From Nanobdellota archaeon (lineage in GTDB: Archaea > Nanobdellota > Nanobdellia > Woesearchaeales > WJIZ01), in assembly GCA_023140175.1 (NCBI GenBank), contig JAGLMD010000019.1:1-33377 (forward strand): a DNA stretch of 33,377 nucleotides, given 5' to 3'. The notes below the pieces were generated by a model, which had not been told where the DNA came from, made no database searches, and saw only the letters and a program-made list of their open reading frames with translations. This document shows, in pieces, positions 7,601 to 30,677 of this stretch (position 1 is the first letter of the stretch; each line of letters begins with the position of its first letter). The translations under genes and the position numbers were made by a program.

Positions 7601-10600
7601 AACCACATGGAATACAAGTATTATAAATCATACTCCTGGTATTGTTATTGGATGGCAATTTTTTGCAAACGATTCATATGATGCCTGGAATCAAACAGAT
7701 ATTTTTTCATTTACTGTGCTGGGTATAAGATGGAACGATACAGCTGCTCTTGAAATGGGATTAATTGAAGTAGGAGACCATATCCTGGACTATAAAGAGA
7801 TATTATCATATGGCACTAATGTTAATGTGCACGTAGATTGTTCCGGCAGCTGCACTGAAATTACTGATGATTTTCCTGATACAATAATTATGAATGATGA
7901 AGACACCATAACAGTAACATTTGATTGCTCTTCAAACAAAGAGGGAAGCTATTCAGCAAATTTTTCAGTATATTCCAACACAGACACCATATTAGATATC
8001 ATAACGGTTAATTGTACTGTTAAAGATCAAACAGCCCCATATTGGCAGGATAATGTGGCCTATCCCGCCTCACCAATAAATTATTCACCAGGACAGAAAT
8101 ACCAATTTAATGTAACCTGGAATGACAATACGGGTGTTGCTAATGTAACCATTGAACATAATTTTACAGGAATACTAAAGAATTATAGCGTCGATAAGGA
8201 TGGAAATGTTTATTACTATGATATTTATGATTTAAGTGTTGGAAGCTATGTCTGGAGATATTTTGCTAATGACAGCACAGGCAATTTAAATCTGACAGAT
8301 CAATGGATTTATGCAGTAAATAAGAGTGATTCATTTGTAAATCTTACATTGAATGGTTCTGATGATGATATATATATCCTGCCGGGAGAAGAAGTCAATA
8401 TCACTGGCAGATTACTCAAACCAGCTAATGGCTTCCTGCAAATATTTGAGAATGGCATCCCAATTTACAATGGTAATGATTTAATAAGTAATATTAGGGC
8501 ATACCCTGCAGGAGGAAACTACAATATAACTTTGGTATATGAAAACAGTAATTATACAAATAGTACAGATTCCCTTTTCGTCTATGTTCAGGACTTTGCA
8601 CCGCCCATTATTAATTTAAATTATCCTGAAAATAATTCATATCTATCAGTATATAATATTACATTTAATTTTACTCTCAGTGACAATGTTGGATTGAAAA
8701 ACGCAACATTATGGGCAAATTTTTCTGGCACTTGGCAGGAGAACGAAACCAACCAAACTGGATTGATTAACGGAGCATCGAATTTCATTAATGTTAGCTG
8801 GCTTGCAGAAGGGCAGTACATATGGAACGTTTTAGCATATGATACATCAGGCAATAGTAATTTTTCTGTTTCAAATTTTACATTAATAATTGACAGGACT
8901 CCTCCAGCAATTGAATTTATAGCTCCAACGCCGGTAAATAATAGTAACCAAACAGGCAGTGCAGCCATAATTAATGTTACTCATTCAGAATATCATCCGG
9001 ATAGCATAACACTATATTGGAATGGCACAAATGAAACATACAGGTACTCTGGAGGTTGCACTAATATTACTAAAAATAACTTAGAAGATGGCACATACAC
9101 ATATTATGTATGGATTAATGATTCAGCAGGAAACAGTAATCAGACCGAAACATACACACTAACAAAAGATTCAACACCTCCCTCCCTATTTTTAGTGTCG
9201 CCATTTGACAATAGATGGAATTCCAGCAGCTTGATAAAATTCGAATACAATGTCTCTGATAATATTATGGGTGTAAATAACTGTAGTCTTGTAATGAATA
9301 TTATAGATAAAGCCAGTGATGGAACACTTACAGGATCCTATACCAGTTCTGAAGGGGATTATACAAACTTAACTTATAATGATAATTCTTATTGGTATGT
9401 TGGAAGTGATGCACCATTTGCAGTAATAGATGCATTTGCTGAAGTGGCGTTTAATCTAAGCTCATTAATAATAGATGAAAATGATGTTTCTGGTATAAAC
9501 TTTTCATTAAACTATTGCCATAGCAGAGAAACCATTTGCAATGGAAATAATGCAACTGGAAATGCAGAAATCGGCCAAAATGTTTCAGTTTATAATTATT
9601 CTTCTGGAAAGTGGGTAACTTTAGGGCATCTTAATTTTGGCAATGGGGGAAATGAAACTAACTCATCCTATTCTGCAAAAGGAACTATGGGCGATTTTAT
9701 CAATGACAGCAGTAAAGAAGTTAAGGCCAGGTTTAGGGTGCAGTTTGCAAATCAGAATCCGGGTTCTGCCAGCTTCTTGGTTATGGATCTCTCTTCCATC
9801 ATAGTTACAGCTGGAAAAACAAATAATACTGTTCAGGAAGGAATATTACAATATTTTGAACGAGATCTTCCCGATGGATCACATGATTGGAGTATCCACT
9901 GTTATGATATTTTAGGAAATGTGAATATATCAGAAACAAGAACTATTAATATTGATACAGTCACTCCAACAAAAGTAACATTACTAAGTCCACCAGATAA
10001 CACCACCTCAAATAACCAAAATCCCCTGCTAAATTGGACACAAACAACAGAAAATAACTTCGCTAATTATACTATACATGTAGATAATGATCAAAGCTTT
10101 TCCTCAATAGATCATATATACTATACCTACCAGATCGATAATACAAGCTTCCAGGTTGCAGATACATGGCTTAATAAAAACCATTGGTATTGGCGTGTCA
10201 TAGCATACGATAAAGCAGGAAATAGCAATATATCCGAATTTTTTAATTATACCGTTGATATAGATGCTCCAGAACTAACCTTAATCACAGAGAACAATAC
10301 TTATAGCAATACATTAACTAATACTATTCAATATAGTGTCAATGATTTTGTTAATGTAAGCAATTGCAGCTTATCTATAAACAACAAGCATAACCAAACA
10401 GATAAATCAATCATAAGAGGGATTACACAAAGCTTTATAGTTGATTTCTCAGAAGAGCAAAGCTTCTACTGGAATATCAATTGTACAGATCTTGCAGGCA
10501 ACATAAATGTCTCAGAAACAAGGCTTTTCACTATAGATATCTCTTCCCCATTAGCATTCAACATTAATTTTCCAAAAAACAATACAAACACAAAGAACCA

Positions 10601-13511
10601 GACCCCCTCTCTCAATTGGTCAAACTCTTCTGACATTAATTTCGCTAACTATACCCTATTAATAGACGACAGCTCAGATTTCACCTCCCCCCTTAGATAC
10701 TATACCTACAATGAGACTAACACATCCTATGACCTCACTTCTCCATTAGCAGATAATATATGGTATTGGCGTGTAATAGCACATGATAAAGCAGGCAATA
10801 CCAGAAATTCAACAGATGACTTTGTATATATAGTTGATACTGCCGCTCCAAATGATTTCAATCTATATCTTCCTTCAAACAACACAGCATCCGCAAATAA
10901 CACCCCTTTCCTGAATTGGACCCAAAGCAGTGATGATTATTTCACAAATTATACTATTTATGTTGATGATAATAGGAGCTTCAGCTCTATCAATTTCACT
11001 TACTATACATTCAATAGTACCAATAATTCATATAGTGTAACTGCACCATGGACAAACAACACCATCTGGTATTGGCGAGTCATAGCATATGATATAGCAG
11101 GAAACATAAAGAATTCTACAGATATTTTTGTTTACATAACAGACAATCGCCCGCCTGTTATTAATTTATCTGCCCCTGGCAATGATTCAGAACAAAAATC
11201 TTCTGTTATAAATTTTGAATTTAACGTGACTGATCTTAGTTATATCTCAAATTGCAGTTTAATAATCGATGGACAAGTAAGAAAAACTGAGACAAGCATA
11301 CAAAAGAATGTGCTCAACACCATAACAGGCACATTCACAAATGGTTATTATGACTGGAGCATCAACTGCACAGATGCTGCAGGAAACATAAATGAATCAG
11401 AGACAAGAAGACTTAATATAAATGTAACACTGCCCCAATATAGATTTTATGAGAGTTGGTTCCAAAATGAATTATCTTCTGCCAACATAAATCTCTCGAC
11501 ACAGATAGATGGTACACAAAATACTATAATACTAAATGATATCATCGGTTTAAATAATTTCAATAATGCTACACTCTCAGTTGCAAATATTAGCAAACAG
11601 GGATTTTTGATACCTGCCAGCTCAACTATAACATTCAGTAGTTTTATGGATGCACAGAGCCCTGGCTCAGGCTTTCTTACTTGGGAAATATATAAAGTAA
11701 ATTCCTCTGGAGAATATCTCATCTGCCAGATAGGAGACAATGCTGGAACCGCCCCCCCTGCAGTTGAGATAGATAGCAACCAAGACAAACAATATATAGG
11801 CTCCTGCACATCCCCTGCATCAAGCACATTCCTTTCAGTTGATGACAGCTTCAAATTAGTTACTAACTTAAACAGCCTGTCAGCCAAAGACTATACAAAA
11901 TATGTTGATGACCTTAATACATATGTAGAGATACAGGGATATGCATTAGGAAATTTAACAGTCACTTTAGTAGAGCCAGGTTCTGATCCAAAACCAGGAG
12001 AAGGAGAGTATCTTAATTTATCCTGCCTCTTAAATTGCGAGCTGGGCTATTGCCTTGAAACAAACGTTTATGCTCAATTCAACACATCAAAAGAAGATTG
12101 GAAAGACATCTCAACAGACCAATTAGACAATATCATTCTTAACATAAGCCAAAATAATCCTGTTGTCTTAGGAATAATCAACACAACAACAGACGGAAAT
12201 TTCTCCTTATTAGCAAATAACGTATCAGAGGATAACAATATAAGGTGCTTTGCCGCATCTACATATGCAGATGCAATAAGTGATTATCAAAATGTCAGTA
12301 TTTTAGATAAGACAGCTCCAAATATCTCTCTGGTAAATCCGATAGAAGCTTATTCTGGAGCACCACAAACTATAACATTCAGCTACATCCCAAAAGACGC
12401 TCATTTAAAAAATTGCAGCTTATATGGAAATTTCTCAGGAATATGGACAATTAATCAAACAAATACAACACTAGTCTCAGGCCAGACAAACTATTTCCAG
12501 CCAGTCTATCTTTCCTATGGAAGCTATATATGGAATGTAAAATGCTATGACACATCTGGAAACTATAACTTCTCATCAGAAAACAGGACAATGATAATAG
12601 CAGGCGATCTTTTCATCAATTCTTCTGGCATTAAATTCAGCAAAGAAAATCCAATTGAGGGCGATAGCATAATGATTAATGCCACAGTACATAATCTTGC
12701 TGATAAAAATGAGACCGATGTCTTAATAAGATTCTATGAGGGTAATCCAGATAATGGAGGAATACAGATTAATAGCGACATTATTGTTAATATCACTGCC
12801 TTAAATAATAAAACAGTCAATGTTAGCTGGACAGCAAAAATAGGGAGCTTTGATTTCTTTGTCAAAGTTGATCCTGAAGACAATATAATTGAATCTGATG
12901 AAAACAACAACAAAGCTAACAATTCTTTATCTATATCTTCATATCATATCTATTATGGTAAAACAATAACAAACGTCCTGTTAGACAATGCTTTCAATAT
13001 GACAGTATTTTCATGGTTTAATGAAACAAATATAACAGGAAATATCTATGTAATAGACTCTGACAGCAGTATAGATTGGACAAGCTTATATGCAATAGGA
13101 AGAAACGATACAAATGGTTTCCAGGTAAATGATTGGGAAGAAGTTGACAGCCTATTAAATATGACCAATCTGACAGATTCTATCAATAATACATATATAC
13201 TAAACAGCCAGCCCAAAAACCTAACTGATTTTATTGTTAGAGGAAGTACAATTTACAATGTTTCTTTTGTCAATAGCACAAATTCATCTGATTTTATAAC
13301 AGGAATCATGTGGGACAGAAGCGATTCTGGAACTAATACATACTATGATGAAAACGAAATGGAAGACCTGGTTTTTGTAACAAAGCTCAATCCCAATAAT
13401 GAGGGAAAATATGGAAATTATGATTACGAGATCAAAATTCCTGCTAATCTAAGAAAATACAGGGTGCCGAATAACTATGACTCGGTTTCGATTTACACAG
13501 AATTAGAATAA
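4638..13511 (+). CDS. Giant (2957 aa) secreted multi-domain surface protein: signal peptide, duplicated N-terminal beta domain, Ig-like and FN3-like repeats, CARDB-like domain, shared C-terminal domain
   Basis: Single long ORF with hydrophobic N-terminus (IIWTSMILLIISMSIGLNSSAS). Start GTG overlaps the stop of the upstream giant ORF (GTGA). C-terminal ~300 aa aligns by eye with the end of the upstream protein. Confidence 0.92.
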   Translation: MKLNKIIWTSMILLIISMSIGLNSSASTITIDKNQYTIGNVVEIDLGLSDYTNIYLSIISDSEVYRFLGIPENPVKFIPKTIGNYSIKLFNLSNNSLISIYNFNVEAPAETEEEKEENKEENKSKEGLEQRIIKTINISSIKEDILNKNKTAKSDTTNTTKENVAVFTDKINYTLGEKIIIRIEPKTEHYHQLYISSEDSTYKFLGIPEKELTFIPKNSGKYYIELRDDTKLLSYYEFTIIQDNTENPPINSLADLKEKIAEITKYTKTKKPELRPIRNHFKPDEDPTFNFEFEKTKNQTKPAIFSTLSYPKKQTGKWESDEETIKTRILDSKNRLTSLTTEIEEVDDGKFKISIQEERAFRPGLYFLEINFSGSGEDTIIKQNFTWGVLAINTHKSIYLENELADIGIAVLDNNGKMVCDANVTLEITDPAGIKTTLTTPQDIIVTEACRIYDITQRPDYYTNYSINSAGTYLINLTAITKDGTWNIQDNFSVSENVDFDVSRGIPQTRIYPAVNYIMNISIKADKGHNGIINEYVPASFDISLYQGMTITTIGDTKILSWDVNLKAGDTISLAYEYDAPDVSPEFYLLGRLNIGSWEEARYWQIASDAANGQLEDTLFSCEKSILAVGERTNCTGVYEETANKVETWIVWLEDDAVQITRDDCLGDDFKITDVDLTTDNTECNSELDGAVTCTDWGKQVANQYIRWEIEACLADVDNQIITAASSSTQGTFVLDNVSVIETKAADYSINISINGNPNTDNTIDYITNATINGTCGAQAITCYLYGNVSGTMEMLASDNTLPFVVRYNASIPAGSYTFQVNSTNNITGRTNYLTVNKAGSSIQCLINGSQSNFGPYRYPFDVNVTANLVTPAAKTANISIDSFVNNSGSSPLIQITTINKGGNFTANCSFDGNQNYSSISESFWIYSNFAPYWSQNKSNDTAIYQGEDINLSVEWGDDYGLSHYIFGTNLSGSLVNSSPILFTGSPETTWNTSIINHTPGIVIGWQFFANDSYDAWNQTDIFSFTVLGIRWNDTAALEMGLIEVGDHILDYKEILSYGTNVNVHVDCSGSCTEITDDFPDTIIMNDEDTITVTFDCSSNKEGSYSANFSVYSNTDTILDIITVNCTVKDQTAPYWQDNVAYPASPINYSPGQKYQFNVTWNDNTGVANVTIEHNFTGILKNYSVDKDGNVYYYDIYDLSVGSYVWRYFANDSTGNLNLTDQWIYAVNKSDSFVNLTLNGSDDDIYILPGEEVNITGRLLKPANGFLQIFENGIPIYNGNDLISNIRAYPAGGNYNITLVYENSNYTNSTDSLFVYVQDFAPPIINLNYPENNSYLSVYNITFNFTLSDNVGLKNATLWANFSGTWQENETNQTGLINGASNFINVSWLAEGQYIWNVLAYDTSGNSNFSVSNFTLIIDRTPPAIEFIAPTPVNNSNQTGSAAIINVTHSEYHPDSITLYWNGTNETYRYSGGCTNITKNNLEDGTYTYYVWINDSAGNSNQTETYTLTKDSTPPSLFLVSPFDNRWNSSSLIKFEYNVSDNIMGVNNCSLVMNIIDKASDGTLTGSYTSSEGDYTNLTYNDNSYWYVGSDAPFAVIDAFAEVAFNLSSLIIDENDVSGINFSLNYCHSRETICNGNNATGNAEIGQNVSVYNYSSGKWVTLGHLNFGNGGNETNSSYSAKGTMGDFINDSSKEVKARFRVQFANQNPGSASFLVMDLSSIIVTAGKTNNTVQEGILQYFERDLPDGSHDWSIHCYDILGNVNISETRTINIDTVTPTKVTLLSPPDNTTSNNQNPLLNWTQTTENNFANYTIHVDNDQSFSSIDHIYYTYQIDNTSFQVADTWLNKNHWYWRVIAYDKAGNSNISEFFNYTVDIDAPELTLITENNTYSNTLTNTIQYSVNDFVNVSNCSLSINNKHNQTDKSIIRGITQSFIVDFSEEQSFYWNINCTDLAGNINVSETRLFTIDISSPLAFNINFPKNNTNTKNQTPSLNWSNSSDINFANYTLLIDDSSDFTSPLRYYTYNETNTSYDLTSPLADNIWYWRVIAHDKAGNTRNSTDDFVYIVDTAAPNDFNLYLPSNNTASANNTPFLNWTQSSDDYFTNYTIYVDDNRSFSSINFTYYTFNSTNNSYSVTAPWTNNTIWYWRVIAYDIAGNIKNSTDIFVYITDNRPPVINLSAPGNDSEQKSSVINFEFNVTDLSYISNCSLIIDGQVRKTETSIQKNVLNTITGTFTNGYYDWSINCTDAAGNINESETRRLNINVTLPQYRFYESWFQNELSSANINLSTQIDGTQNTIILNDIIGLNNFNNATLSVANISKQGFLIPASSTITFSSFMDAQSPGSGFLTWEIYKVNSSGEYLICQIGDNAGTAPPAVEIDSNQDKQYIGSCTSPASSTFLSVDDSFKLVTNLNSLSAKDYTKYVDDLNTYVEIQGYALGNLTVTLVEPGSDPKPGEGEYLNLSCLLNCELGYCLETNVYAQFNTSKEDWKDISTDQLDNIILNISQNNPVVLGIINTTTDGNFSLLANNVSEDNNIRCFAASTYADAISDYQNVSILDKTAPNISLVNPIEAYSGAPQTITFSYIPKDAHLKNCSLYGNFSGIWTINQTNTTLVSGQTNYFQPVYLSYGSYIWNVKCYDTSGNYNFSSENRTMIIAGDLFINSSGIKFSKENPIEGDSIMINATVHNLADKNETDVLIRFYEGNPDNGGIQINSDIIVNITALNNKTVNVSWTAKIGSFDFFVKVDPEDNIIESDENNNKANNSLSISSYHIYYGKTITNVLLDNAFNMTVFSWFNETNITGNIYVIDSDSSIDWTSLYAIGRNDTNGFQVNDWEEVDSLLNMTNLTDSINNTYILNSQPKNLTDFIVRGSTIYNVSFVNSTNSSDFITGIMWDRSDSGTNTYYDENEMEDLVFVTKLNPNNEGKYGNYDYEIKIPANLRKYRVPNNYDSVSIYTELE

Positions 13512-13629
13512 AGCATATTCATCATGCACAAAAATTCCGAAGGAATTTTTGGCACAACAAAATCAAAGATTTTGTGTGCAATTGAGCTTTGCTCAATTCG
13601 CACCCTAGAAATGCGGAGCATTTCTATGG

Positions 13630-13673
13630 CATTTGCGCCTTGCTCCTTTCCCCAAAGGAGTTGGGCGCTTTAT
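13630..13673 (+). repeat. 44-bp exact direct repeat, copy 1 (contains a hairpin)
   Basis: catttgcgccttgctcctttccccaaaggagttgggcgctttat, identical to 13749-13792. Confidence 0.9.
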
Positions 13674-13748
13674 ATTCATCACATTTGCGTCTTTTCCCTT
13701 TTAAAACAAAGGGGAAAGGCGCTTTATGTTCGCAATTTGTGTTCATCA

Positions 13749-13792
13749 CATTTGCGCCTTGCTCCTTTCCCCAAAGGAGTTGGGCGCTTTAT
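13749..13792 (+). repeat. 44-bp exact direct repeat, copy 2
   Basis: Identical to 13630-13673. Confidence 0.9.
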
Positions 13793-13929
13793 GCTCATGT
13801 TTTCATCATGCCTAGAAATGTAAGCGTTTCTATGGCACTTGCGCATTGACACCTTTATCCATATAATAAGAGTTTCTTGCACTTCAGCATCGTCGCCAAT
13901 ATACAAATAGACTACTTGAAAATAATTAC

Positions 13930-13976: not shown

Positions 13977-15296
13977 ATGGTTACTAAATTCATTAGTGGA
14001 TTAATGAAGAAAAAAGGCGAAAAAGTAGACAGTAAAGAGAAGAAAAGCACAGAAGATATTCCTGATGAATTGCCGACACTGGCAGATGAGATAACTGAAG
14101 AGCAAGAAGAAAAAAGCACAGAAGATATTGAAAAAGTAAATGATTTCAAAGAGATTGAAGAGAAACCCGAAGAGGGAGCTAACAAAGTAAAAGACTTTGA
14201 AGAACTGGATGAAAAACCAATAGAGAAAGCTGAAAAAGTAAAAGACTTTGAAGAACTGGATGAAAAACCAATAGAGAAAGCTGAAAACGATTCTGCCCCG
14301 CTCCAACAGCCTGTTGATTCTGAAGCTATAGAACATGAAAAAGTTCCAGAAACAAAAGAAGCCCCAGTCCAGCTTAAACCATTGCCCCCTGAAAAGAGAG
14401 TAGAAGAAGAGAAAAAACAGCATATTAATAATGAAGAAATTGTAGAACAGCCAATTATTGACAAAAAAACAGAAGAGGGTAGAGGCTTTTTCTCAGAAAT
14501 CCTGTCCTTGTCTATAAATCAGGGAATTAACGAAAACATATTAAAGCAGGATCTAACTAAAGGGATGAAAGATTTCTGGTATTTCCATCCACAGCAGAAG
14601 GGAAGGTTTAAGAATAAGGAGCTCCTAAGACATGATATAATTAATGGATTGACTGAATTAAAAAGGCTGGAAGATAGGTGGACAGCCCAAAAAGCATTCT
14701 TAGATGAAGATAAAAGATCTCTTTTTGAGAAGGAAAGAGACATCAAGACTAAAGCAGAAGAACTGCAAAGAACCTTAAGCCAGCTCAAATTTTACGAAGA
14801 TTTACCTGCAAAAAAATTCTTTTGGCTGAAAAATGGCATAGTCATAAAAAATATTTATGAGTTGATGAATTTATTAGAGGTAATGAACAATAGCACATTT
14901 AATCATCATGTAAACGATAACGTAAATGACTTCAGCGAGTGGATAGAAAACAGCGTAGGAAACAAAGAATTAGCAAAAAAGATTGGTTCTGCAAGAACAA
15001 GAGAAGAGATGTCTATTATCCTGGAGAACGCCTTGATAGGAAGCACATATAGAGTAGGGTCTGATGAATATTTCAGGATGTGCAATGGACAGGTAATAAA
15101 GAATATCAAAGAACTGATAACTGCATTGAAAGAGATAAATGAGCCTATTTTCATGACACATGTAAATGAAGAAAAGAATGATTTTGACTTATGGATTAGG
15201 CATGTCTTTAAAAATGAGTATCTCGCAGACAGATTGAAAATAGCAAAATCAAGGGAAGACATGATAAATATTCTGGAAAGTTATTATTATCTATAG
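13977..15296 (+). CDS. Protein with acidic low-complexity N-terminal region and two tandem C-terminal DUF5752-like domains
   Basis: 439 aa. Two copies of 'FxxxNGxVIKNIxELxxxLxxxNxxxFxxHVNxxxNDFxxWIxxxxxNxxLAxxixxAxsrEeMxxILE' at about 14809-15030 and 15062-15290. Confidence 0.8.
   Translation: MVTKFISGLMKKKGEKVDSKEKKSTEDIPDELPTLADEITEEQEEKSTEDIEKVNDFKEIEEKPEEGANKVKDFEELDEKPIEKAEKVKDFEELDEKPIEKAENDSAPLQQPVDSEAIEHEKVPETKEAPVQLKPLPPEKRVEEEKKQHINNEEIVEQPIIDKKTEEGRGFFSEILSLSINQGINENILKQDLTKGMKDFWYFHPQQKGRFKNKELLRHDIINGLTELKRLEDRWTAQKAFLDEDKRSLFEKERDIKTKAEELQRTLSQLKFYEDLPAKKFFWLKNGIVIKNIYELMNLLEVMNNSTFNHHVNDNVNDFSEWIENSVGNKELAKKIGSARTREEMSIILENALIGSTYRVGSDEYFRMCNGQVIKNIKELITALKEINEPIFMTHVNEEKNDFDLWIRHVFKNEYLADRLKIAKSREDMINILESYYYL
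14184..14285 (+). repeat. Two tandem 51-bp units encoding KVKDFEELDEKPIEKAE
   Basis: 14184-14234 and 14235-14285, essentially identical at the DNA level. Confidence 0.85.
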
Positions 15297-15905: not shown

Positions 15906-17180
15906 ATGAAAAAGAATGAGTTAATTAGGAGAATTTTTCTTATGGCGTTATTATCTACTATAGCTATAGGCGTTGTATATGCAGCCCCTACAGATCCAAC
16001 AGGGCCGCAGAATATAACTATAAGTCCTAGTTCAAGATTTGATACTGGCAACTATCCTGCTATGACACTATACGCAGAAGCAGGAAACCTTACCCAATTG
16101 ACTATTACATCACTATCCCAAACCCAAACATGGCAGGGATATTATGGTGAAATATCAGGTACAATAACATTAGATGATGCAAGTGAATATACTTTATATG
16201 ACTGGTATTCTGCAGAGCCTCAGGGAGAAATTTATGCTGCTTCTGAAATAGTCTCAGACTGGGAAACAGTACATTGTTTTAACTATAGCAACAATGGAAC
16301 CAATCACTTCTATTATTATGATGGTGGAACCAAAAACACAACAACCACTATTGTTTTAAACCTATCTGAACTAGAAACAGGCAGCCTGGACTGGTCTTTA
16401 GGGCTATCAGCAGGCAATTATGATGGAGTAGATGAGACATTCAATGAAAGTGGAACAATAGCTAGTGTCTGGACCCCAAGTGGAACAACATATGCAGATC
16501 ATATGGAATTTATGGTTGGCACAATTAATATCTCAGGAGGATCCTGCCCGGCAACAAACACATATGAAATAGCCTGTATAAATAAGACAAATCCATCACA
16601 AGCTAATCAGGCTGAAGCACTTAGAAGAAATTGTTATAATGTAACTGACGGCACCGAATTAGTTAATATTATTGCAGATGGAAGTAATGCTACTTATGGA
16701 AACCAGACAATATGTGATATAAATCTCACTAACCCATCTCTATTAGGAGATATCGAGATATGGGTGGGCAATGCAAACTACTCTGACCAGTCATTTGAAC
16801 ATGGTGGATGGTATGAAATCAAAGTAAATGCCAGCAATGCAGAATATGGAAATCAGACAATATGCGATGTTTATACTGCTGATGCAACCCAGATGGCAAA
16901 TGCCAGCTTATGGGAAGGAGATATATATACTAACCAGATATTCCAATTGGATGGATGGAAAGATGGCAGCAATTTCCAGGAAGTTCTGCTAACAATAAAC
17001 AACACTGAAACAATAATCTACACAACAATCATAGAAAACAGAAGACAAGATAACTTAACAGACCCAAAAGGCTACAACGACCAGACGCATGATTTCCAGA
17101 TGTTGGTAGGAGACGACGGCCACGCAGGCCCAAAACAGGATACAACAACCACCTATTATTTCTATGTGGAATTGGAATAA
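15906..17180 (+). CDS. Secreted 'A-family' protein A0 (424 aa, with internal expansion)
   Basis: Signal peptide (IFLMALLSTIAIGVVYA-APTDP); shares 'YYGEISGTITLDD..YTLYDW...GEIYAASE', 'FQEVLL...IYTTIIE' and 'DFQML...YYFYVELE*' with A1-A3. Confidence 0.85.
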   Translation: MKKNELIRRIFLMALLSTIAIGVVYAAPTDPTGPQNITISPSSRFDTGNYPAMTLYAEAGNLTQLTITSLSQTQTWQGYYGEISGTITLDDASEYTLYDWYSAEPQGEIYAASEIVSDWETVHCFNYSNNGTNHFYYYDGGTKNTTTTIVLNLSELETGSLDWSLGLSAGNYDGVDETFNESGTIASVWTPSGTTYADHMEFMVGTINISGGSCPATNTYEIACINKTNPSQANQAEALRRNCYNVTDGTELVNIIADGSNATYGNQTICDINLTNPSLLGDIEIWVGNANYSDQSFEHGGWYEIKVNASNAEYGNQTICDVYTADATQMANASLWEGDIYTNQIFQLDGWKDGSNFQEVLLTINNTETIIYTTIIENRRQDNLTDPKGYNDQTHDFQMLVGDDGHAGPKQDTTTTYYFYVELE

Positions 17181-17185
17181 ACTGA

Positions 17186-17202
17186 TTTATTTTTTTATTT
17201 TT
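17186..17202 (+). terminator. T-rich archaeal-type terminator after A0
   Basis: tttatttttttattttt immediately downstream of the A0 stop. Confidence 0.5.
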
Positions 17203-17226
17203 GCATAACAGAAAATATGACATAAA

Positions 17227-17997
17227 ATGAAAACAAGCAAAAACATAACTCTGGCTATAATTATTCTAATTGTTTTAGCAGGAATCAGCTATGTTTTCGC
17301 CCTGCCTTCTGCACCAACTATTACTTATTTAGGCAATAGCACAAAAACCACTGCAAGCGGCCTAAAGGTAAATACAACAGGAAATGACACCTCTGCTCCA
17401 GATAAGGCAGGAGGCTTCATATTTACAATAAGGCTTAACGCTGATTCACAAACCGATAGATGGAAAGGCTATGTAGGAAATGTTTCTGGTTCATTAGTCT
17501 TGGATGATACAGACGGATATACTATATATGATTGGGCCATGACAACAAGCATAAGTGGTGAAGTATATGCAACAAGAACATCTGGCGCTATTACATGGGA
17601 TGATGTCAACTGCTCTACATCTACAAATATCACTAATGAAGAAATAGCTATGAACCATACAGAAAATCCTAATGATAACATCTCTACAACATTCAACGAT
17701 ACGGGCAACAGTGAATTCTATATTGGGAGCACAATAATCGGTGCAAATACCTGCTATACAACAAACCTGTTTGTAAATGATTCATCCCCTGTAAATGATA
17801 ATTTTGAGGAAGTGCTGCTGCATGACGGCAGCAATATGATCTACACAAGCATTATCGAAGAAAATCAGGATGGATACAACAATCGTGCCGCAGGTGATCG
17901 AACATATACCTATGATTTCCAGATGATTTTGCCTGAAAGAGGTTATTCCGGGTGGTCGCAATCAACACCCTATTATTTCTTTGTTGAACTGGATTGA
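17227..17997 (+). CDS. Secreted A-family protein A1 (256 aa)
   Basis: Signal peptide; 'WKGYVGNVSGSLVLDDTDGYTIYDW...GEVYATRTSGAITWDDVNCS...NFEEVLLHDGSNMIYTSIIEENQDGY...YDFQMILPERG...PYYFFVELD*'. Confidence 0.88.
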   Translation: MKTSKNITLAIIILIVLAGISYVFALPSAPTITYLGNSTKTTASGLKVNTTGNDTSAPDKAGGFIFTIRLNADSQTDRWKGYVGNVSGSLVLDDTDGYTIYDWAMTTSISGEVYATRTSGAITWDDVNCSTSTNITNEEIAMNHTENPNDNISTTFNDTGNSEFYIGSTIIGANTCYTTNLFVNDSSPVNDNFEEVLLHDGSNMIYTSIIEENQDGYNNRAAGDRTYTYDFQMILPERGYSGWSQSTPYYFFVELD

Positions 17998-18036
17998 ACA
18001 AAGAAAGCAAGATTGTAAAAAGATACGTGAATGTAA

Positions 18037-19014
18037 ATGAAAGAGCATAAGATAAAACAAATTATTTGGACTTTAGGGTCACTTTTACTTACGATTTCTT
18101 TATTCTTAGGTGTGCCTATGATAACAACAGATGTTATAGGGGCTAATCGCACAAATGAGACAGTTGTGACTAAAGTATGGGTATGGAACACAGAACCAAA
18201 TATAACTCTCGTTGAGATAAGCCCCAGCTCTATAAGCCTTAATCCGGGGGGTACATTCAGGGTAAACTGTACAGCATATATTTGGGATTATAATGGCTGG
18301 CAGGACATAAACTTCACAAATGCTACATTTTATCACGCTGGTACCAGCAAAAATCATTATGAGGATGATAACAATAACCACTATACTGCAAATTCAACTG
18401 CCTGCAACTGCACAGATGCAGGTGATGCTGACGGCACCAATATAACATGCCTATGTGTATTTGATATCTGGTACTATGCAGATAATGGAACCTGGATATG
18501 TAATGTAAGCGCATATGACAACGGCGGAAATGCCACAACGCGTATTCATAATTTTAATAGTACAAATTATGCCTCTGCCACAATACTCGAGATTATAGGC
18601 ATTAACACTGTTAACGAAATAGACTTTGGCAACCTGTCTGTTACAGAAACATCTAATTCTATTGTAGCTAATGTAACTAACTGGGGTAATGTCCCTATTA
18701 ATGTAAGCATAAGGGGCTGGGGAGGATCCAGCGAAAATGTCACAAATGCAGGTAATTTTGATATGCTGTGTGATTATGGCAATATCTCCCATGGATATGA
18801 AAGATACAGCGGAAATAATATCTCCTGGGATGATATGTTCAATGTATCAAACACATCAATACAGCTCCCTCATTTTTGGCTGCCTGTAAGAACTAACGAT
18901 GATTTCAACACTAATGATACCAATAACACATTTTGGAGAATACAAATCCCCCCAACAATAGGCGGATTTTGCAACGGAACTGTAATGTTTAGCGCTATAG
19001 ATAGAACAATATAA
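18037..19014 (+). CDS. Secreted 'B-family' protein B1 (325 aa)
   Basis: Hydrophobic N-terminus and VIGA-N cleavage-like site; 'VTKVWVWNTEPNI', 'CLCVFDIWYYADNGTWICNVSAYDNGGNATTRIH', 'VNVTNWGNVPINVSIRGWGG', 'FWRIQIPPTIGGFCNGTVMFS'. Paralogue of 19940-20917. Confidence 0.88.
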   Translation: MKEHKIKQIIWTLGSLLLTISLFLGVPMITTDVIGANRTNETVVTKVWVWNTEPNITLVEISPSSISLNPGGTFRVNCTAYIWDYNGWQDINFTNATFYHAGTSKNHYEDDNNNHYTANSTACNCTDAGDADGTNITCLCVFDIWYYADNGTWICNVSAYDNGGNATTRIHNFNSTNYASATILEIIGINTVNEIDFGNLSVTETSNSIVANVTNWGNVPINVSIRGWGGSSENVTNAGNFDMLCDYGNISHGYERYSGNNISWDDMFNVSNTSIQLPHFWLPVRTNDDFNTNDTNNTFWRIQIPPTIGGFCNGTVMFSAIDRTI

Positions 19015-19049
19015 GAAATGTTTAGCTAAATGCGATTGAAATGGTATAT

Positions 19050-19066
19050 ATGGCTAAAAAAGCCAT
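19050..19066 (+). other. Perfect 6-bp hairpin upstream of A2
   Basis: atggct-aaaaa-agccat. Confidence 0.4.
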
Positions 19067-19092
19067 TTATCGAAATAAAAAAATTAATGTAA

Positions 19093-19869
19093 GTGAAAAT
19101 GGAAAAAAAACGTAATTTCAGAATTGGCTCACTAGTAATCTTGCTCTTATTTATCATGATAGCAATCAGCCATGTCTATGCTATACCTACAGATCCCACT
19201 GCTACTTATATATCTAATAGTACAAAAACCTCTGCACCCGGCCTAATGGTAAATACAACAGGTAATAATTCAATTACCTCAGATGCTAAAGACCAGGCAG
19301 GTAGTTTCATATTTACAATAAGGCTCACAGGCGAAACCCAGAATGATAGATGGAAAGCTTATGTAGGAAATGTTTCTGGTAATTTTGTTTTGGATGATGC
19401 CGAAGGATACAGCCTATATAGCTGGAACATTAAAACAAGTATAGGCGGCGAAGTCTATGCCACAAGGACTAATGGAAGCATCGATTGGACAAGTATGAAT
19501 TGTTCCAACAGCACACACATAACCAATGAAGAAATAGCTATGAGCCATACTAATAATCCTGATGATAATATCTCCAGAACATTTAACGGAACAAATAATA
19601 GCCTAATTTATGTCGGCAGCTTATTGATTCCGGCAGACACATGCCCTACCACAAACATATATGTGAATAGTACAGTCCCAAGTAATGACGAATTTGAAGA
19701 AGTATTATTGTTTGATGGAAGTAATTTGGTGTATACAACTATTATTGAAGATAATAAAGAAGGTTATCGTAACGGCTCAACATATGACTTCCAGATGATT
19801 TTGCCTGAAAAAGGAACAGCAGGTTGGGCGCAATCAACTCCTTATTACTTTTTTGTCGAATTGACTTAG
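19093..19869 (+). CDS. Secreted A-family protein A2 (256-258 aa; GTG 19093 or ATG 19099 start)
   Basis: Same family signature as A1: 'WKAYVGNVSGNFVLDDAEGYSLYSW...GEVYATRTNGSIDWTSMNCS...FEEVLLFDGSNLVYTTIIEDNKEGY...YDFQMILPEKG..GWAQSTPYYFFVELT*'. Confidence 0.87.
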   Translation: MKMEKKRNFRIGSLVILLLFIMIAISHVYAIPTDPTATYISNSTKTSAPGLMVNTTGNNSITSDAKDQAGSFIFTIRLTGETQNDRWKAYVGNVSGNFVLDDAEGYSLYSWNIKTSIGGEVYATRTNGSIDWTSMNCSNSTHITNEEIAMSHTNNPDDNISRTFNGTNNSLIYVGSLLIPADTCPTTNIYVNSTVPSNDEFEEVLLFDGSNLVYTTIIEDNKEGYRNGSTYDFQMILPEKGTAGWAQSTPYYFFVELT

Positions 19870-19939
19870 AGAAATAGTTGACTAAAGTATTAGCATGTAT
19901 TAAACGCAAACGAGATTGAAAGAGAAAGTATGAATGTAA

Positions 19940-20917
19940 ATGAAAAAGAGCAAGATAAAACAAATTATTTGGATTTTAGGATCATTTTTACTTGTGATTT
20001 CTTTATTCTTAGGTGTGCCCATGATAACAACAGATGTTATAGGAGCTAATCGCACAAATGAATCTGCAGTGACTAAAGTATGGGTATGGAACACAGAACC
20101 CAATATAACAAGCATGGTTGTAAGCCCGAGCCCCATTGACCTTACCCCTGGAAACGTGACTATAGTCACCTGCACAGCATATGTTTGGGATTACAATGGC
20201 TGGCAGGACGTAACTATTGTAAAATCCTCATTCTATGATATAAATGAAGGAGATGGCACAACAGCCGATAAGAACTATAGATATCTCAATTCAACATGCG
20301 GAAATTGCACATCAGCTGATAGTTCAGGAACTAATGCGTCCTGCAGCTGTCAATTTGGAGTTTGGTATTTTGCAAATAATGGAACATGGGAATGCAATAT
20401 GACTATTCGCGATAGAGGAGGCAACGCTACAACACGTATCCACCTCTTTAATGATACAATGCAATCCGGCAGTATAATATTGAACAGCATATTGGGGGTT
20501 GATATAAGTGAAGGAGTAATAGACTATGGCAATTTATCTGTTACAGAGCTGTCTGATCCCGAATCAGTCAATATAACTAACTGGGGCAATGTGCCAATTA
20601 ACATAAGTGTACGTGAGTGGGGCGGAACTGAGGAAAGCGAAACAAATGTAGGCAATTTCTCTATGTTATGTGACTATGGTAATATCACGCATGGTTACCA
20701 AAGGTATAGTACTAGTAACTTTACTGATTACACCAATATGACGAATGTGACAAACACATCAACAGTCATCCCTAATTGGAACTTGCCTGTAAGAACTAAT
20801 GATACCCATATCGGAAAAGATAGAAACCAAACATTTTGGAGAATAAAAATACCATTAACAGTTGGTGGATTTTGCAACGGAACTATAATGTTTAGCGGAA
20901 CAGAGTATTACAACTAA
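19940..20917 (+). CDS. Secreted B-family protein B2 (325 aa)
   Basis: Same length as B1; first ~50 codons nearly identical at DNA level to B1. Confidence 0.88.
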   Translation: MKKSKIKQIIWILGSFLLVISLFLGVPMITTDVIGANRTNESAVTKVWVWNTEPNITSMVVSPSPIDLTPGNVTIVTCTAYVWDYNGWQDVTIVKSSFYDINEGDGTTADKNYRYLNSTCGNCTSADSSGTNASCSCQFGVWYFANNGTWECNMTIRDRGGNATTRIHLFNDTMQSGSIILNSILGVDISEGVIDYGNLSVTELSDPESVNITNWGNVPINISVREWGGTEESETNVGNFSMLCDYGNITHGYQRYSTSNFTDYTNMTNVTNTSTVIPNWNLPVRTNDTHIGKDRNQTFWRIKIPLTVGGFCNGTIMFSGTEYYN

Positions 20918-20926
20918 AGGATCAAA

Positions 20927-21118
20927 ATGGCAGACAAAAGTGTATTCGAGGAATTTGTTGGAAAAGAAGTGAAGGCCCCTTACAGAGACGGAACTCAGTT
21001 CAGGATAGCACGAGGCAAATTAGACTCTATTGTAAATGGTTTTATAAAAATAAAAGGAAAATTAGGCACGATAATAATCAATGAAAAGAACATAGAGAAG
21101 ATGTCTTTGTTGAAATAG
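20927..21118 (+). CDS. Small (63 aa) Sm-like / small beta-barrel protein, paralogue 2
   Basis: FEEFVGKEVKAPYRDGTQFRIARGKLDSIVNGFIKIKGKLGTIIINEKNIEKM; very similar to 15628-15837. Confidence 0.75.
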   Translation: MADKSVFEEFVGKEVKAPYRDGTQFRIARGKLDSIVNGFIKIKGKLGTIIINEKNIEKMSLLK

Positions 21119-21126
21119 GGTCTATA

Positions 21127-21133
21127 TTTTTTT
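21127..21133 (+). terminator. T-tract terminator after second Sm-like gene
   Basis: T7 run just downstream of the stop codon. Confidence 0.35.
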
Positions 21134-21185
21134 AGAGATTATAAAATATAATTTCAGCACTGCCATTACTTACATAACGAGTATT

Positions 21186-21644
21186 ATGACAGAAGAAAGT
21201 TGCGTATTAATTGGAAACAATATTAATTCTCCTAATCATAAAAATATATACATTCCGCTTTCTATATTTAATAATTTCCATTTAAGCGCCCTTGAAACAA
21301 TTACAAAGTATATGAAAGAAGAGTTGGGCTTAAGCTATAGGGAAATTTCATTTCTTATCAACAGAAATGAGAGAACAATATGGGGCTCTTACAATAATTC
21401 TAGAAGAAAAATGCAGGAAAGTTTCTCTATAGAACAATCAAAATTTTTCATTCCATTCGATATACTCAAAGACAGGTCATTAAGCATACTTGAGGCAGTC
21501 ACAGAATATCTCAAAGAAGAGTTTAATCTTAGGTATTGCGAAATTGCGGCTTTATTGAATAGGGATGATAGGACTATTTGGACCGTCTATAACAGGGCCA
21601 AAAAAAAGCGGAGAAGAAAAAACTATGAAGAAATGTTATCATAA
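21186..21644 (+). CDS. Tandem-HTH DNA-binding protein (two sigma-region-4-like / wHTH-like units)
   Basis: Two units: 'IPLSIFNNFHLSALETITKYMKEELGLSYREISFLINRNERTIWGSYNNSRRK' and 'IPFDILKDRSLSILEAVTEYLKEEFNLRYCEIAALLNRDDRTIWTVYNRAKKK'. Confidence 0.75.
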   Translation: MTEESCVLIGNNINSPNHKNIYIPLSIFNNFHLSALETITKYMKEELGLSYREISFLINRNERTIWGSYNNSRRKMQESFSIEQSKFFIPFDILKDRSLSILEAVTEYLKEEFNLRYCEIAALLNRDDRTIWTVYNRAKKKRRRKNYEEMLS

Positions 21645-22353
21645 ATTTCAGATTAGTGCACTAATTATCATGGCATTGATAGTCACACTAGTAATCCCAG
21701 AAGTAGTTTCACTTCCAAGTGCACCATCTGTAACTTCGCATGGCAATGAGACTGCACCCCTAACAACAGGCATTGGAATCAATACATCTGGCGGCTCTAT
21801 AACAACAATGGTTCTTAACGTAACAACCCAAAATTTAAGATGGAAAGCATATGTAGGAAATGTTACAGGATCTTTAGTACTTGACGACGCCGGCAGTTAC
21901 ACCATATATGACTGGGACATGATAAGCATATTAGGAGAAATCTATGCTACCAGATCTCCTTCATCCATAAGCTGGCCGGATATTAACTGTTCCACAGCTG
22001 TAAATATAACCAACGAAGAGATATATCTATACCATACATCTAATCCGAATGACAACATCTCTACTACATTTGCAGTAAAAAGCCATGCTGCATTCTACAC
22101 AGGCAATGTAAAAATAGATGCAGATAATTGCTTCTCATTGCATACATATGTAAATGACACAAACCAGGATGCTGCTTTCGAGGAATTTTTGCTTCACGAC
22201 GGAAACAATATGATATATACTACTATAATTGAAGAAGATATCCCTGGCTACGCACCAAATGAGACCTTCGACTTCCAGATGATTTTACCGGAAAATGGCC
22301 TGGCTAATTGGACATCCTCAACAGCTTATTACTTTTATGTTGAGCTGACATAA
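21625..22353 (+). CDS. Secreted A-family protein A3 (242 aa)
   Basis: Start moved from 21565 to ATG 21625 (MKKCYHKFQISALIIMALIVTLV...) on the basis of the signal peptide; overlaps the HTH gene end by 20 nt; ends 'TAYYFYVELT*'. Confidence 0.85.
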   Translation: MKKCYHKFQISALIIMALIVTLVIPEVVSLPSAPSVTSHGNETAPLTTGIGINTSGGSITTMVLNVTTQNLRWKAYVGNVTGSLVLDDAGSYTIYDWDMISILGEIYATRSPSSISWPDINCSTAVNITNEEIYLYHTSNPNDNISTTFAVKSHAAFYTGNVKIDADNCFSLHTYVNDTNQDAAFEEFLLHDGNNMIYTTIIEEDIPGYAPNETFDFQMILPENGLANWTSSTAYYFYVELT

Positions 22354-25300: not shown

Positions 25301-25795
25301 TACTGTTCACAATGCGGCCATGATCTATTTAATATTTGTGATAAAGAAGAATGCCGGGAATACAAAGAAGGCTGCTTTTTTGAAGAAGCCTTTTTTGATT
25401 ATGGTTTTTGTTCCAGCTGCTCTTTATTGGGCAGTTGTGAAGATTATTATTACGATAAAGAAAGGTGCATAAAAGATCCCTGCAATTTCAACTCATGTCT
25501 CTGGAATAATATCACATGTTGTACAGATACAGATAAAGACAATATATGTGGCTATAATGACAATTGTCCAAATATTTTTAATCCATTACAGGAAAATAAA
25601 GACGGGGACAGCAGAGGCAGTAAATGTGATCTCTGTGATAATGAGCCATATTTATTTTACCCGCAGGAATATAAAGAAACAATATGCAACGACAGTATAG
25701 ATAATGATTGCGATTACCTGACTGACTGTGAAGATAAAGACTGTTTCACACAATGCATTAATATTTCCATAGGTGCTGTTAATGAAAGCAAATAG
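22394..25795 (+). CDS. N-terminally anchored, extremely Cys-rich extracytoplasmic protein (1133 aa) with a possible thioredoxin-fold segment near the N-terminus
   Basis: Single N-terminal TM; 'VEVYYKESCCLKKIKDIADKFEGVKIEKI...EFPVVIL'; repeated 'CC..(D/N)xCVxxxKCYN...WIDxDKxxxxC' and 'CCGxDxxE' modules; 'DNCPNIFNPLQENKDGDSRGSKCD' resembles a thrombospondin type-3 repeat. Confidence 0.85.
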   Translation: MMNTNKKIMIMAAVLIILVTITTTSILRKENEEKIEMISSMVKKAEDSIKNNGILELNNIQYPKSDNILVEVYYKESCCLKKIKDIADKFEGVKIEKIEKTQKIENLPDNIKTMGSIIEFPVVILKEKDKREERIIAGISACSEKILTYTICDSINNPPIHCSKSIFARTKVKNPALRLAEDKECYENCFVEYNNNNNIINQLWHGPPCKRIEGYTEGISKIVTKECLGKSCKSDSEDRACCNKDNCVYQNKCYNERKIYDVDSDGQKEVCTPYEDNSIWIDPDKSESVCSFAKYNWLDCKPKTECINGINKIGGKQDGLCCGDDEGEFFTECKGEICQKESLACCNAGQCVFENKCYNTGCRALKTDTGTKKAYCDGRRNTWIDLDKNEQYCKKCLGPKSWSGYFCCGDDKNEGRYYDELMINNGSTKKGTGIIFCTNKKSQCISPANGDIVPNGCYSITETETNISERYYCKKGEWYDTDLNKGYCEECGFNWIADREENNCCGNNEKEYFTIGKDGTSACCNSSASPVNNGKCCYYHACGNGILEGTEKCEPTNTNNNIHCTQTTETCFKEKLGTRDGFGDCDSACGCQYDEFSYSCTKGKCNAECNNDKDCNEENTCNMNNCKCEKQKISNLSGRCPHKVHIKTNKKKVYINETIIIEINIYDKNNKTMPSVEFWLDIIVDNEIIGASLYSTGLNGKYTIKRLIGKNSYSGLFRFVVKVTHENCNPVGDSVSVEFITQPSAADKKRKLTEKIKREIIEKWKIEKINFEQPICGNSEIEIGEICEGNSVCRASLGCDYTTNKYDIIEYCNNCNCPEDRWSEPNSNNYCKNCRHCGDNILNCDELCDNETIYAGNMCENDALYERFSVCTGCDSYENITSEILADNCSCDCPETPEDNCIDGNYISYPENHFAGCHGDECNECKCEDIYKKDTNKDNIEDKCGPEICGNRFDDNDNGIIDEKECIWFYCSQCGHDLFNICDKEECREYKEGCFFEEAFFDYGFCSSCSLLGSCEDYYYDKERCIKDPCNFNSCLWNNITCCTDTDKDNICGYNDNCPNIFNPLQENKDGDSRGSKCDLCDNEPYLFYPQEYKETICNDSIDNDCDYLTDCEDKDCFTQCINISIGAVNESK

Positions 25796-26468
25796 AAAAA
25801 TATCTGAGAAAACAATAGCAATAATTGTATTGATAGCTGCAATTATATTTATCACGGTAATTCCTTTCGAGACCCTTGTAGGCAAGCCATCTATATTAGG
25901 CGCAGTAATTACAAAGGTATATGTTAGGCCAATAGAAGTAGACAATACATGTAATATTACATTAGGTGAAAACTGGAATCTAATTTGTATTGCATGTCAG
26001 CCAGAAAATAAATCAGTAGATTCTGTACTAAAAAATATAAGTGAAAACTATACCTCAATCCATACATACGATGCCTCTGACACTATAGATCATTGGAAAA
26101 GCCATAATCCAGATATGCCATCATGGGTTATTCAGGATCTTGCCGCAATAAATGAAAAAAGCGGCTATTGGATAAACATGGATCACAACAGTAGTTTAAG
26201 GGTAAATGGCGTGATATCATCTCCAAATAATATACCCCTGATACAAGGATGGAATCTTATTGGTTATCCTGCAGATGAGTCCAAAAGCCCGGAAAATGCA
26301 TTCTCGGGCATAAGTGGAAGCTATTCCATAGTTTGGAGATATAATACCAGTACAGGTACATATCCTTACTATGATCCAAATCTGGCTGGTGGAACCATAA
26401 AGACAATAACCAAGGATAGAGGATATTGGATAAACATGACAATAGGTGGTACTTTATGGATAACATAA
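25782..26468 (+). CDS. Membrane-anchored protein with duplicated GWNLIGYP/GYWINM-type domain
   Basis: ATG 25782 preferred over GTG 25773; overlaps the upstream stop. Two units: 'ITLGENWNLICIACQ...SGYWINM' and 'IPLIQGWNLIGYPADE...RGYWINM'. Confidence 0.75.
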   Translation: MKANRKISEKTIAIIVLIAAIIFITVIPFETLVGKPSILGAVITKVYVRPIEVDNTCNITLGENWNLICIACQPENKSVDSVLKNISENYTSIHTYDASDTIDHWKSHNPDMPSWVIQDLAAINEKSGYWINMDHNSSLRVNGVISSPNNIPLIQGWNLIGYPADESKSPENAFSGISGSYSIVWRYNTSTGTYPYYDPNLAGGTIKTITKDRGYWINMTIGGTLWIT

Positions 26469-29457: not shown

Positions 29458-29463
29458 TTTGTA

Positions 29464-29588
29464 TATACTAAACCGCAATGAATTCGGATAAATATCGTGA
29501 ATTGCGGTGATTAGTGTATATTATTTAATGCAATTCGCTAGATTGATAATTACGCCTATATTTTATACTAATTAGCGCAATTATCAAT
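29464..29588. other. Intergenic inverted repeats between convergent genes (possible bidirectional terminator/structured element)
   Basis: accgcaat (29472-29479)/attgcggt (29501-29508) with outer tatacta/ttagtgtata arms; attgataatt (29542-29551)/aattatcaat (29579-29588). Confidence 0.55.
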
Positions 29589-29612
29589 AGTTGTGGATGA
29601 GTATATCCCTAA

Positions 29613-30266: not shown

Positions 30267-30298
30267 GTTATACTCTATCTTGACTATAAAAAAACCAA

Positions 30299-30308
30299 TA
30301 TTTAAAAG
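30299..30308 (-). promoter_or_regulatory. TATA box for the TPR gene
   Basis: CTTTTAAATA on the minus strand, the same 10-mer as at 13935-13944, ~33 bp upstream of the start codon. Confidence 0.5.
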
Positions 30309-30445
30309 TTTGCTTTTAATAATAAACTAATTAAATGATTAATTAAGTAGTGAATTTTAATACTTAACCACCTAATTTTTTAATTTATAAATAACTTATA
30401 AATGCTTTCTAAAAATCATAAAAGTCATTTTTATCATAAAAAATG

Positions 30446-30459: not shown

Positions 30460-30509
30460 TTAGTAATGTTATAAAAGTGTATATATAGCTATAAGAGTAT
30501 ACAGAATAG

Positions 30510-30677
30510 GTGAATTTTTTGAAAAAAAGGGTAAATATAGGTCTAAAAGAGAAAATACATACCCAGGCTAAAATAATTTCTACGATAAAAAAGGTGCCAT
30601 TAGGTGAATATTTTGAGAAAGCGATAGCTGAAGCTGTAAAAAAAGATAAAAAACTGTTAGAGGATTTATTCAAATGA
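30510..30677 (+). CDS. Small (55 aa) ribbon-helix-helix (CopG/Arc-like) protein, absent from the supplied ORF track
   Basis: GTG start; translation MNFLKKRVNIGLKEKIHTQAKIISTIKKVPLGEYFEKAIAEAVKKDKKLLEDLFK*; stop overlaps the next start (ATGA). Confidence 0.75.
   Translation: MNFLKKRVNIGLKEKIHTQAKIISTIKKVPLGEYFEKAIAEAVKKDKKLLEDLFK

What the first reader, a model, noticed from the sequence alone, without database searches (positions are those of the whole stretch)
15906..22353. Cluster of A and B secreted proteins with tandem A-B duplication: candidate two-component envelope or filament system
Order is A0, A1-B1, A2-B2, (Sm2, HTH), A3. A1-B1 and A2-B2 are a duplicated two-gene cassette with an offset of about 1.9 kb. 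All are small, signal-peptide-bearing, Asn-rich beta proteins with no enzymatic motif. Retention of the A-B pairing suggests that A and B proteins interact. The B motif 'VNxTNWGNVPINxSIxxWGG' and 'GFCNGTxMFS' ending suggest Ig-like folds. A donor-strand type polymer, as established for TasA-like and archaeal bundling-pilus proteins, is one testable idea but not shown here.
Basis: partly seen in the sequence, partly recalled or inferred. Interest (0 to 1): 0.7.

Follow-up and report, generated by a model that had tools for sequence, protein, structure and literature searches.

The report
Conserved archaeal surface-protein assembly operon
The cluster is real and is one example of a widespread, undescribed set of secreted proteins (two unrelated modules, A and B) that tiny uncultured archaea encode side by side and also use as end-pieces of giant surface proteins, so it probably builds and anchors their cell surface.

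Summary
On the + strand lie Sm1-A0-A1-B1-A2-B2-Sm2-HTH-A3, with the A-B pair duplicated (offset about 1.87-1.90 kb) under purifying selection. The pairing is conserved: 57 of 70 standalone B genes in DPANN loci have an A gene directly upstream (13 of 24 in B-selected loci). In 99 relatives A and B co-occur (21 of 25 B genomes, p=9e-8).

The core is Aα-Aβ-B, often preceded by a giant (1900-3000 aa) Ig protein. A is also the extreme C-terminal domain of those giants, including both window giants, and the predicted outward domain of a transmembrane HerA ATPase. A models well (pTM 0.83) but has no PDB fold match.

B is a tandem-Ig protein. It also ends large Ig proteins and co-occurs in 25/25 genomes with F2, a membrane-anchored Ig protein (p=1e-19). 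This small/large/anchor set resembles the Firmicute WxL-WxLIP platform, but B lacks WxL motifs. Standalone B carries a conserved N-terminal segment, low-confidence in the model and absent from fused copies: a donor-strand candidate.

Best reading: a Woesearchaeota/Pacearchaeota surface-display platform. A-B contact is not shown (linked-chain AlphaFold pTM 0.51, inconclusive); polymerisation is possible, untested.

The parts
1..4641 (+). Giant Ig/CARDB surface protein G1 (5' end beyond the contig); extreme C-terminal A-type domain at about 4072-4638
   Evidence: Pfam Big_13, CARDB; A7 profile hit 4072-4638 E 2.7e-13; hhalign of giant C-termini to A, prob 99.1, E 4.5e-19
4638..13511 (+). Giant surface protein G2, 2957 aa; C-terminal A-type domain at about 12951-13508
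   Evidence: homologous giants stand in front of A-A-B in about a dozen other loci; C-terminal alignment
13977..15296 (+). 439-aa cytosolic-type protein with DUF5752-like C-terminus; similar tails occur on TM Ig proteins of the same genome
   Evidence: Pfam DUF5752 E 1.2e-6; family F7 in 4 loci; similar tails read in L173
15628..15837 (+). Sm1: small conserved protein, Sm-like by resemblance only; paralogue of Sm2
   Evidence: 11 homologues next to A/B clusters; no Pfam/PDB hit
15906..17180 (+). A0: A protein of the first-position type (A-alpha), with an inserted repeat-containing stretch of about 100 aa
   Evidence: A domain residues 16-221 and 324-423; falls in the first-position clade
17227..17997 (+). 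A1: A protein of the B-adjacent type (A-beta); signal peptide, conserved Cys129/Cys176, C-terminal strand YYFFVELD
18037..19014 (+). B1: signal peptide, conserved N-segment, two Ig-like domains
18154..18198 (+). B1 residues 40-54: candidate donor strand (its core is the most conserved stretch of B, low-confidence in the model, absent from fused B)
19093..19869 (+). A2: duplicate of A1
   Evidence: 63% aa identity, dN/dS about 0.17; tree support 0.996
19940..20917 (+). B2: duplicate of B1
   Evidence: 60% aa identity; tree support 0.998
20057..20101 (+). B2 residues 40-54: candidate donor strand
20927..21118 (+). Sm2: second small Sm-like protein, 79% identical to Sm1
21186..21644 (+). HTH protein with two sigma70-region-4-like repeats, overlapping A3; an H-then-A order recurs in relatives
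   Evidence: Pfam Sigma70_r4_2 E 4.4e-7; 46 A genes directly behind such an H gene
21625..22353 (+). A3: A protein directly behind the HTH gene
25773..26468 (+). F5: secreted 231-aa protein with GWNL-type repeats; in relatives part of an F5-F9-F4-B arm
   Evidence: families and order
30674..33310 (+). F4: Ig-type extracellular part, TM, cytosolic tail; in several other loci directly followed by B on the same strand; the window's contig ends just behind it

Best explanation
The cluster encodes the small subunits of a surface-display platform of Woesearchaeota/Pacearchaeota-type archaea. Shown: A and B are secreted modules that occur both alone (small proteins) and as the last domain of very large Ig-repeat proteins; their genes are kept together in a fixed order; each also has a membrane-linked counterpart (F2, a membrane-anchored Ig protein, always present with B in the genomes tested; a transmembrane HerA-family ATPase that itself carries an A domain). 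Inferred: small A and B proteins form a layer or short polymer at the membrane, and the large proteins are held in it through their terminal A or B domain, as in the small-WxL/large-WxL/WxLIP clusters of Firmicutes. Inferred, weaker: B-B or B-partner joining uses the conserved N-terminal segment of standalone B as a donated beta strand; fused B copies, which lack it, would only accept a strand and so sit at an end, like tip subunits. The duplicated A-B cassette would add a second flavour of subunit pair.
For: Synteny: A directly upstream of 57/70 standalone B genes, gap mostly -4 to +20 bp; A-alpha/A-beta/B and H-A strings in dozens of loci; the two A positions are separate clades, 97% correct split, support 0.998, all 47 first-position A genes in one clade. 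Co-occurrence in 99 genomes: B-A 21/25, p 9e-8; HerA-A 24/31, p 1e-7; B-F2 25/25, p 1.3e-19. Shared terminal modules: 15 giants end in an A-type domain (window giant 2.7e-13); 11 large proteins end in a B domain, in the clear cases with only 3-7 aa behind it. HerA: A domains in front of CarboxypepD_reg and DUF87/HerA, also in the own genome at C13, A-like domain E 1.6e-12 between two TM segments; a HerA paralogue lies in the own genome's second A/B cluster on C98. F2 is adjacent to B or its fused form in 9 of 17 cases and has a weak WxLIP_HBD hit, E 3.7e-4. N-segment of B: entropy 1.54 against about 1.8 in the domains, block pLDDT 57, PSSM median 32.8 in standalone against 3.0 in fused B, AUC 0.99, while the rest of B stays recognisable. 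Foldseek matches of B include CsuE and CfaE tip subunits, E about 2e-5.
Against: No experiment, no proteomics, no complex structure. The linked A1-B1 model gives no confident A-B arrangement (pTM 0.51). Foldseek hits for B are generic tandem-Ig hits (Fabs and integrins score about as well) on a two-protein model with low TM-scores. A is absent in 4 of 25 B genomes and B in 17 of 38 A genomes, so neither strictly needs the other. Loci fetched with A inflate the 57/70; in B-selected loci it is 13/24 (counted). Genomes are related, so Fisher p-values overstate. F2's WxLIP hit is in 1 of 10 members. A conserved N-segment could simply be the first strand of domain 1.
Confidence: 0.58

Rival explanations
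1. A donor-strand filament: B is the major pilin of a thread- or TasA-like fibre, B-capped Ig proteins are tip adhesins, F2 is a membrane-tethered chaperone or base.
For: Conserved N-segment only on standalone B; tip-subunit-like fold hits; weak ASH/PapD-type hits for F2; no prepilin motif, so signal-peptidase-I-type export is likely; many sequons, as in the glycosylated Sulfolobus thread (PMC9715654).
Against: No incomplete Ig fold demonstrated; no homomultimer could be predicted; no sequence or Pfam match to TasA-type families; does not explain A, which is more numerous than B.
Confidence: 0.3
2. A and B are the S-layer (or its two-component lattice) of these archaea, with giants as major wall proteins.
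For: Multi-copy, sequon-rich, secreted, next to giant Ig proteins.
Against: Patchy: A in 38/99 and B in 25/99 genomes of one order, odd for a sole wall protein; a different CWB2-like family (F6) is also found at these loci.
Confidence: 0.2
3. A paralogue array for surface variation: many tandem A copies diversify by duplication and conversion, and A-B order is incidental.
For: Many tandem A copies per genome; lineage-specific or homogenised A-B duplicates in the window and in L092.
Against: Order is conserved at the level of A subfamilies across deep divergences; dN/dS 0.17-0.29.
Confidence: 0.07

Closest known systems
WxL protein clusters of Firmicutes (small WxL, large WxL, WxLIP = DUF916-DUF3324-TM); PMC10599100, PMC9772566
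   Same: One module as a stand-alone small protein and as the C-terminal domain of large display proteins, plus a signal-peptide, multi-Ig, C-terminal-TM partner encoded next to it; WxLIP is predicted to complete WxL by strand insertion.
   Different: B has no pair of WxL motifs (4/68), no Pfam WxL hit; archaea without peptidoglycan; second module A and HerA ATPase have no WxL counterpart; only one of ten F2 proteins hits WxLIP_HBD, weakly.
Archaeal thread (Saci_0406), archaeal bundling pili, TasA: donor-strand filaments; PMC9715654
   Same: Sec-exported, sequon-rich Ig-type subunits with an N-terminal extension.
   Different: No sequence or Pfam match; B has two Ig-like domains; strand donation untested; many extra components.
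Chaperone-usher pili (CsuE, CfaE tip subunits)
   Same: Two-domain tip subunits are among the best fold matches of B.
   Different: No usher found and no outer membrane expected; F2 is membrane-anchored; fold hits are generic.
HerA/FtsK-type ATPases (DUF87)
   Same: Cytosolic ATPase domain.
   Different: Here joined through TM segments to an outward A domain and CarboxypepD_reg repeats, an architecture I know of no description for (from memory, not searched exhaustively).

Membership tests
WxL cluster | Small protein and large protein sharing a C-terminal domain | tested here: met
   68 standalone B, 11 B-capped large proteins
WxL cluster | Two conserved WxL motifs in the domain | tested here: not met
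   4 of 68 standalone B have two WxL
WxL cluster | Partner with DUF916-DUF3324-TM | tested here: inconclusive
   F2 is signal peptide, Ig-type domains, TM; weak WxLIP_HBD hit 3.7e-4 in one member, no DUF916 hit
WxL cluster | Peptidoglycan binding | not testable with these tools
   needs a binding assay; not expected in archaea
Donor-strand filaments (TasA, thread, bundling pili) | Recognisable sequence homology to a described subunit family | tested here: not met
   no Pfam/NCBIfam/PDB sequence hit for B
Donor-strand filaments (TasA, thread, bundling pili) | N-terminal strand extension outside the fold | tested here: inconclusive
   conserved, low-confidence in the model, lost in fused forms
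Donor-strand filaments (TasA, thread, bundling pili) | Subunit fold completed by the neighbour's strand | not testable with these tools
   no multimer prediction on offer
Type IV pilins | Class III signal peptide motif before the N-terminal helix | tested here: not met
   loose motif in only 20/211 A and 2/50 B
Immunoglobulin-like fold (A protein) | Fold match to Ig-like structures | tested here: not met
   best PDB match E 0.62, prob 0.03, model pTM 0.83
Immunoglobulin-like fold (B protein) | Fold match to Ig-like structures | tested here: met
   111 PDB matches at E <= 1e-3; those listed are mainly tandem-Ig structures

The most novel reading that the evidence does not exclude
A previously unrecognised, ATPase-linked envelope machine of Woesearchaeota/Pacearchaeota: a new-fold exoplasmic module (A) links a transmembrane HerA motor, small A/B subunits and giant A- or B-tipped surface proteins into one apparatus for display, secretion or cell-cell transfer.
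Probability: 0.22. Interest if true: 0.85.

Novelty: new variant of a known kind. Interest (0 to 1): 0.64.

Why it matters
How DPANN archaea, most of them thought to live on other cells, build their surface is largely unknown. This gives a recurrent gene set with three tight partners (A, B, F2), a module with no known fold, and an ATPase that carries the same module. It turns many 'hypothetical secreted proteins' into one testable system: which parts bind, whether B polymerises, and whether HerA drives it.

Tried and rejected
Pfam, NCBIfam and PDB sequence searches for A and B: nothing significant. Viral origin: no A relative in viral contigs, no viral fold match. Rfam and tRNA: none in the window. 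Homology of A and B to each other: not detected by hhalign. B as a WxL domain: rejected on motif. Type IV pilins: rejected on signal motif. A as an Ig domain: rejected. Bacterial promoter/terminator scan: at the level of shuffles, uninformative for an archaeon. Sm label: unsupported. The A-behind-HTH genes form no single clade containing A3. B alignments A1 and A3 were too divergent for a genome-contig scan, so the scan used A4. Distance correlation of A and B across loci (0.58) is no better than for the other A (0.55), so it gives no evidence of specific co-evolution. Paper searches on DPANN surface systems found nothing describing this set.
Full report
OBSERVATION. The A-B cassette is duplicated with offsets of about 1.87-1.90 kb; A1/A2 and B1/B2 are 63% and 60% identical with dN/dS about 0.17 and 0.29. 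Gaps between genes are -20 to 78 bp. A3 best starts at 21625 and overlaps the HTH gene. A0 is an A domain with an insertion of about 100 aa.

WHERE IT COMES FROM. The window is a whole contig (C96) of a 2.07-Mb genome. Named relatives of A are almost all Woesearchaeota, Pacearchaeota and other Nanoarchaeota-type DPANN MAGs; in a phylum-wide draw 37 of 147 genomes have A, 36 of them in the window's own order. No viral contig carries a recognisable relative. The organism itself could not be named.

FAMILIES. A and B have no Pfam, NCBIfam or PDB-sequence relatives and no detectable relation to each other (hhalign). AlphaFold of A1 with 120 homologues: pLDDT 88.6, pTM 0.83; best PDB fold match E 0.62, best viral match E 0.31, so A is probably a fold without a solved example. 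This rests on one model searched with its signal peptide in place. B appears as two Ig-like domains in the linked model and matches tandem-Ig structures, CsuE and CfaE tip subunits among the first, but antibodies and integrins too.

SYNTENY. Among non-redundant standalone B genes with a neighbour in view, 57 of 70 (71 counting an edge case; the tally lists 57 A, 4 B and 10 others) have A directly upstream on the same strand. Most loci were fetched with A, which inflates this; in the loci selected with B it is 13 of 24 (counted). The recurring strings are A-alpha/A-beta/B and H-A, and in about a dozen loci a giant protein precedes them, as in the window. A genes in the first position and those next to B are separate clades (96.9% of genes correctly split, support 0.998). 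With all A genes, all 47 first-position genes fall in one clade with 7 labelled intruders; genes behind the HTH do not form one clade that includes A3.

CO-OCCURRENCE. In 99 related genomes from about 87 families: A in 38, B in 25, HerA-type protein in 31. B-A 21 shared, p 9e-8; HerA-A 24 shared, p 1e-7; HerA-B 19 shared. F2 at E <= 1e-40 is in 29 genomes, including all 25 with B (p 1.3e-19). The 1e-40 cut was chosen after seeing a gap in the hit list. Shared ancestry makes these p-values optimistic.

THE SAME MODULES ON LARGE PROTEINS. The last 190 or so residues of 15 giants, both window giants included, are homologous to A (hhalign prob 99.1, E 4.5e-19), confirmed by a direct profile hit at 4072-4638 (E 2.7e-13). 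Eleven large Ig proteins end in a B domain. A third setting of A is the N-terminal, predicted outward part of membrane proteins that continue with CarboxypepD_reg repeats and a HerA/DUF87 ATPase; the window's own genome has one on contig C13 with TM segments at 23-41 and 861-879 and an A-like domain between them (E 1.6e-12), and a shorter HerA paralogue in its second A/B cluster on C98.

F2 AND THE WxL PARALLEL. F2 (about 390 aa; signal peptide, Ig-type domains by pattern, C-terminal TM) lies directly beside B or a B-capped protein in 9 of 17 cases and beside A in three more. One member has a weak WxLIP_HBD hit (3.7e-4) and two weak ASH hits. The WxL clusters of Firmicutes have this composition: small protein, large protein with the same C-terminal domain, and an Ig-Ig-TM partner predicted to insert a strand into WxL (PMC10599100; PMC9772566). 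B is not a WxL domain (two WxL motifs in only 4 of 68). So it may work like a WxL platform (inference) but is not a member.

A CANDIDATE DONOR STRAND. Residues 44-54 of B, just behind the signal peptide, are more conserved on average than the folded domains (entropy 1.54 against about 1.8), with alternating conservation, yet the AlphaFold block that covers B residues 41-50 has pLDDT 57 and no strand. Scored with a leave-one-out matrix, standalone B have median 32.8 and the 11 fused copies 3.0 (AUC 0.99), while domain regions stay recognisable in the fused copies. This is what donor-strand subunits and strand-less tip subunits would look like; it is not proof, since the fused copies have other sequence in front and the segment could be an ordinary first strand.

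A-B CONTACT. A chain read through the window DNA from A1 into B1 (stops read as residues, 16 such paired rows among 124) was folded as a stand-in for a multimer. Both proteins fold well but pTM is 0.51; no error matrix is returned, so the contact question stays open. A-B distance correlation across loci (0.58) is no higher than with the other A (0.55), so there is no sign of specific co-evolution.

THE DUPLICATION. In both the A and the B tree the window's two cassettes are sisters (supports 0.996, 0.998), and the same is true in the relative L092, which has the same Sm-A-A-B-A-B-H-A order (supports 1.0, 0.96). Either the two-gene unit was duplicated twice independently or older copies were homogenised; both speak for A and B moving together.

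VERDICT. A real, ordered, widespread and apparently undescribed DPANN surface system.

Noticed in passing
window 13617-13848: Short non-coding tandem-like repeats (a 50-nt unit at 13630 and 13749, 96% identical) between the second giant and the 439-aa gene; not dispersed elsewhere in the genome.
   Followed up: partly
window 25773-33377: Genes F5 and F4 stand in a conserved order in front of B, B-capped protein and F2 in other genomes (L049, L053, in part L050); the window's contig ends right behind F4.
   Followed up: partly
L173 (own genome C13): Two TM Ig proteins and the window's 439-aa protein end in similar DUF5752-like cytosolic tails, as does the 768-aa HerA paralogue: a possible shared cytosolic docking domain.
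   Followed up: partly
window about 16560-16880 (inside A0): The insertion in A0 holds an internal duplication around 'YGNQTICD'.
   Followed up: no
L105: A contig titled 'Patescibacteria group bacterium isolate KA32' carries a full giant-A-A-B locus; probably a mislabelled or mis-binned archaeal contig.
   Followed up: no
L044 9170-10837, L046 15833-17596, L047 11952-13787, L053 17263-19029: A 550-610-aa secreted family (F6) with weak CWB2 similarity recurs beside A/B loci; a candidate wall protein.
   Followed up: partly
window 22394-25795: A 1133-aa Cys-rich protein with an N-terminal hydrophobic segment directly behind A3, no Pfam hit.
   Followed up: no
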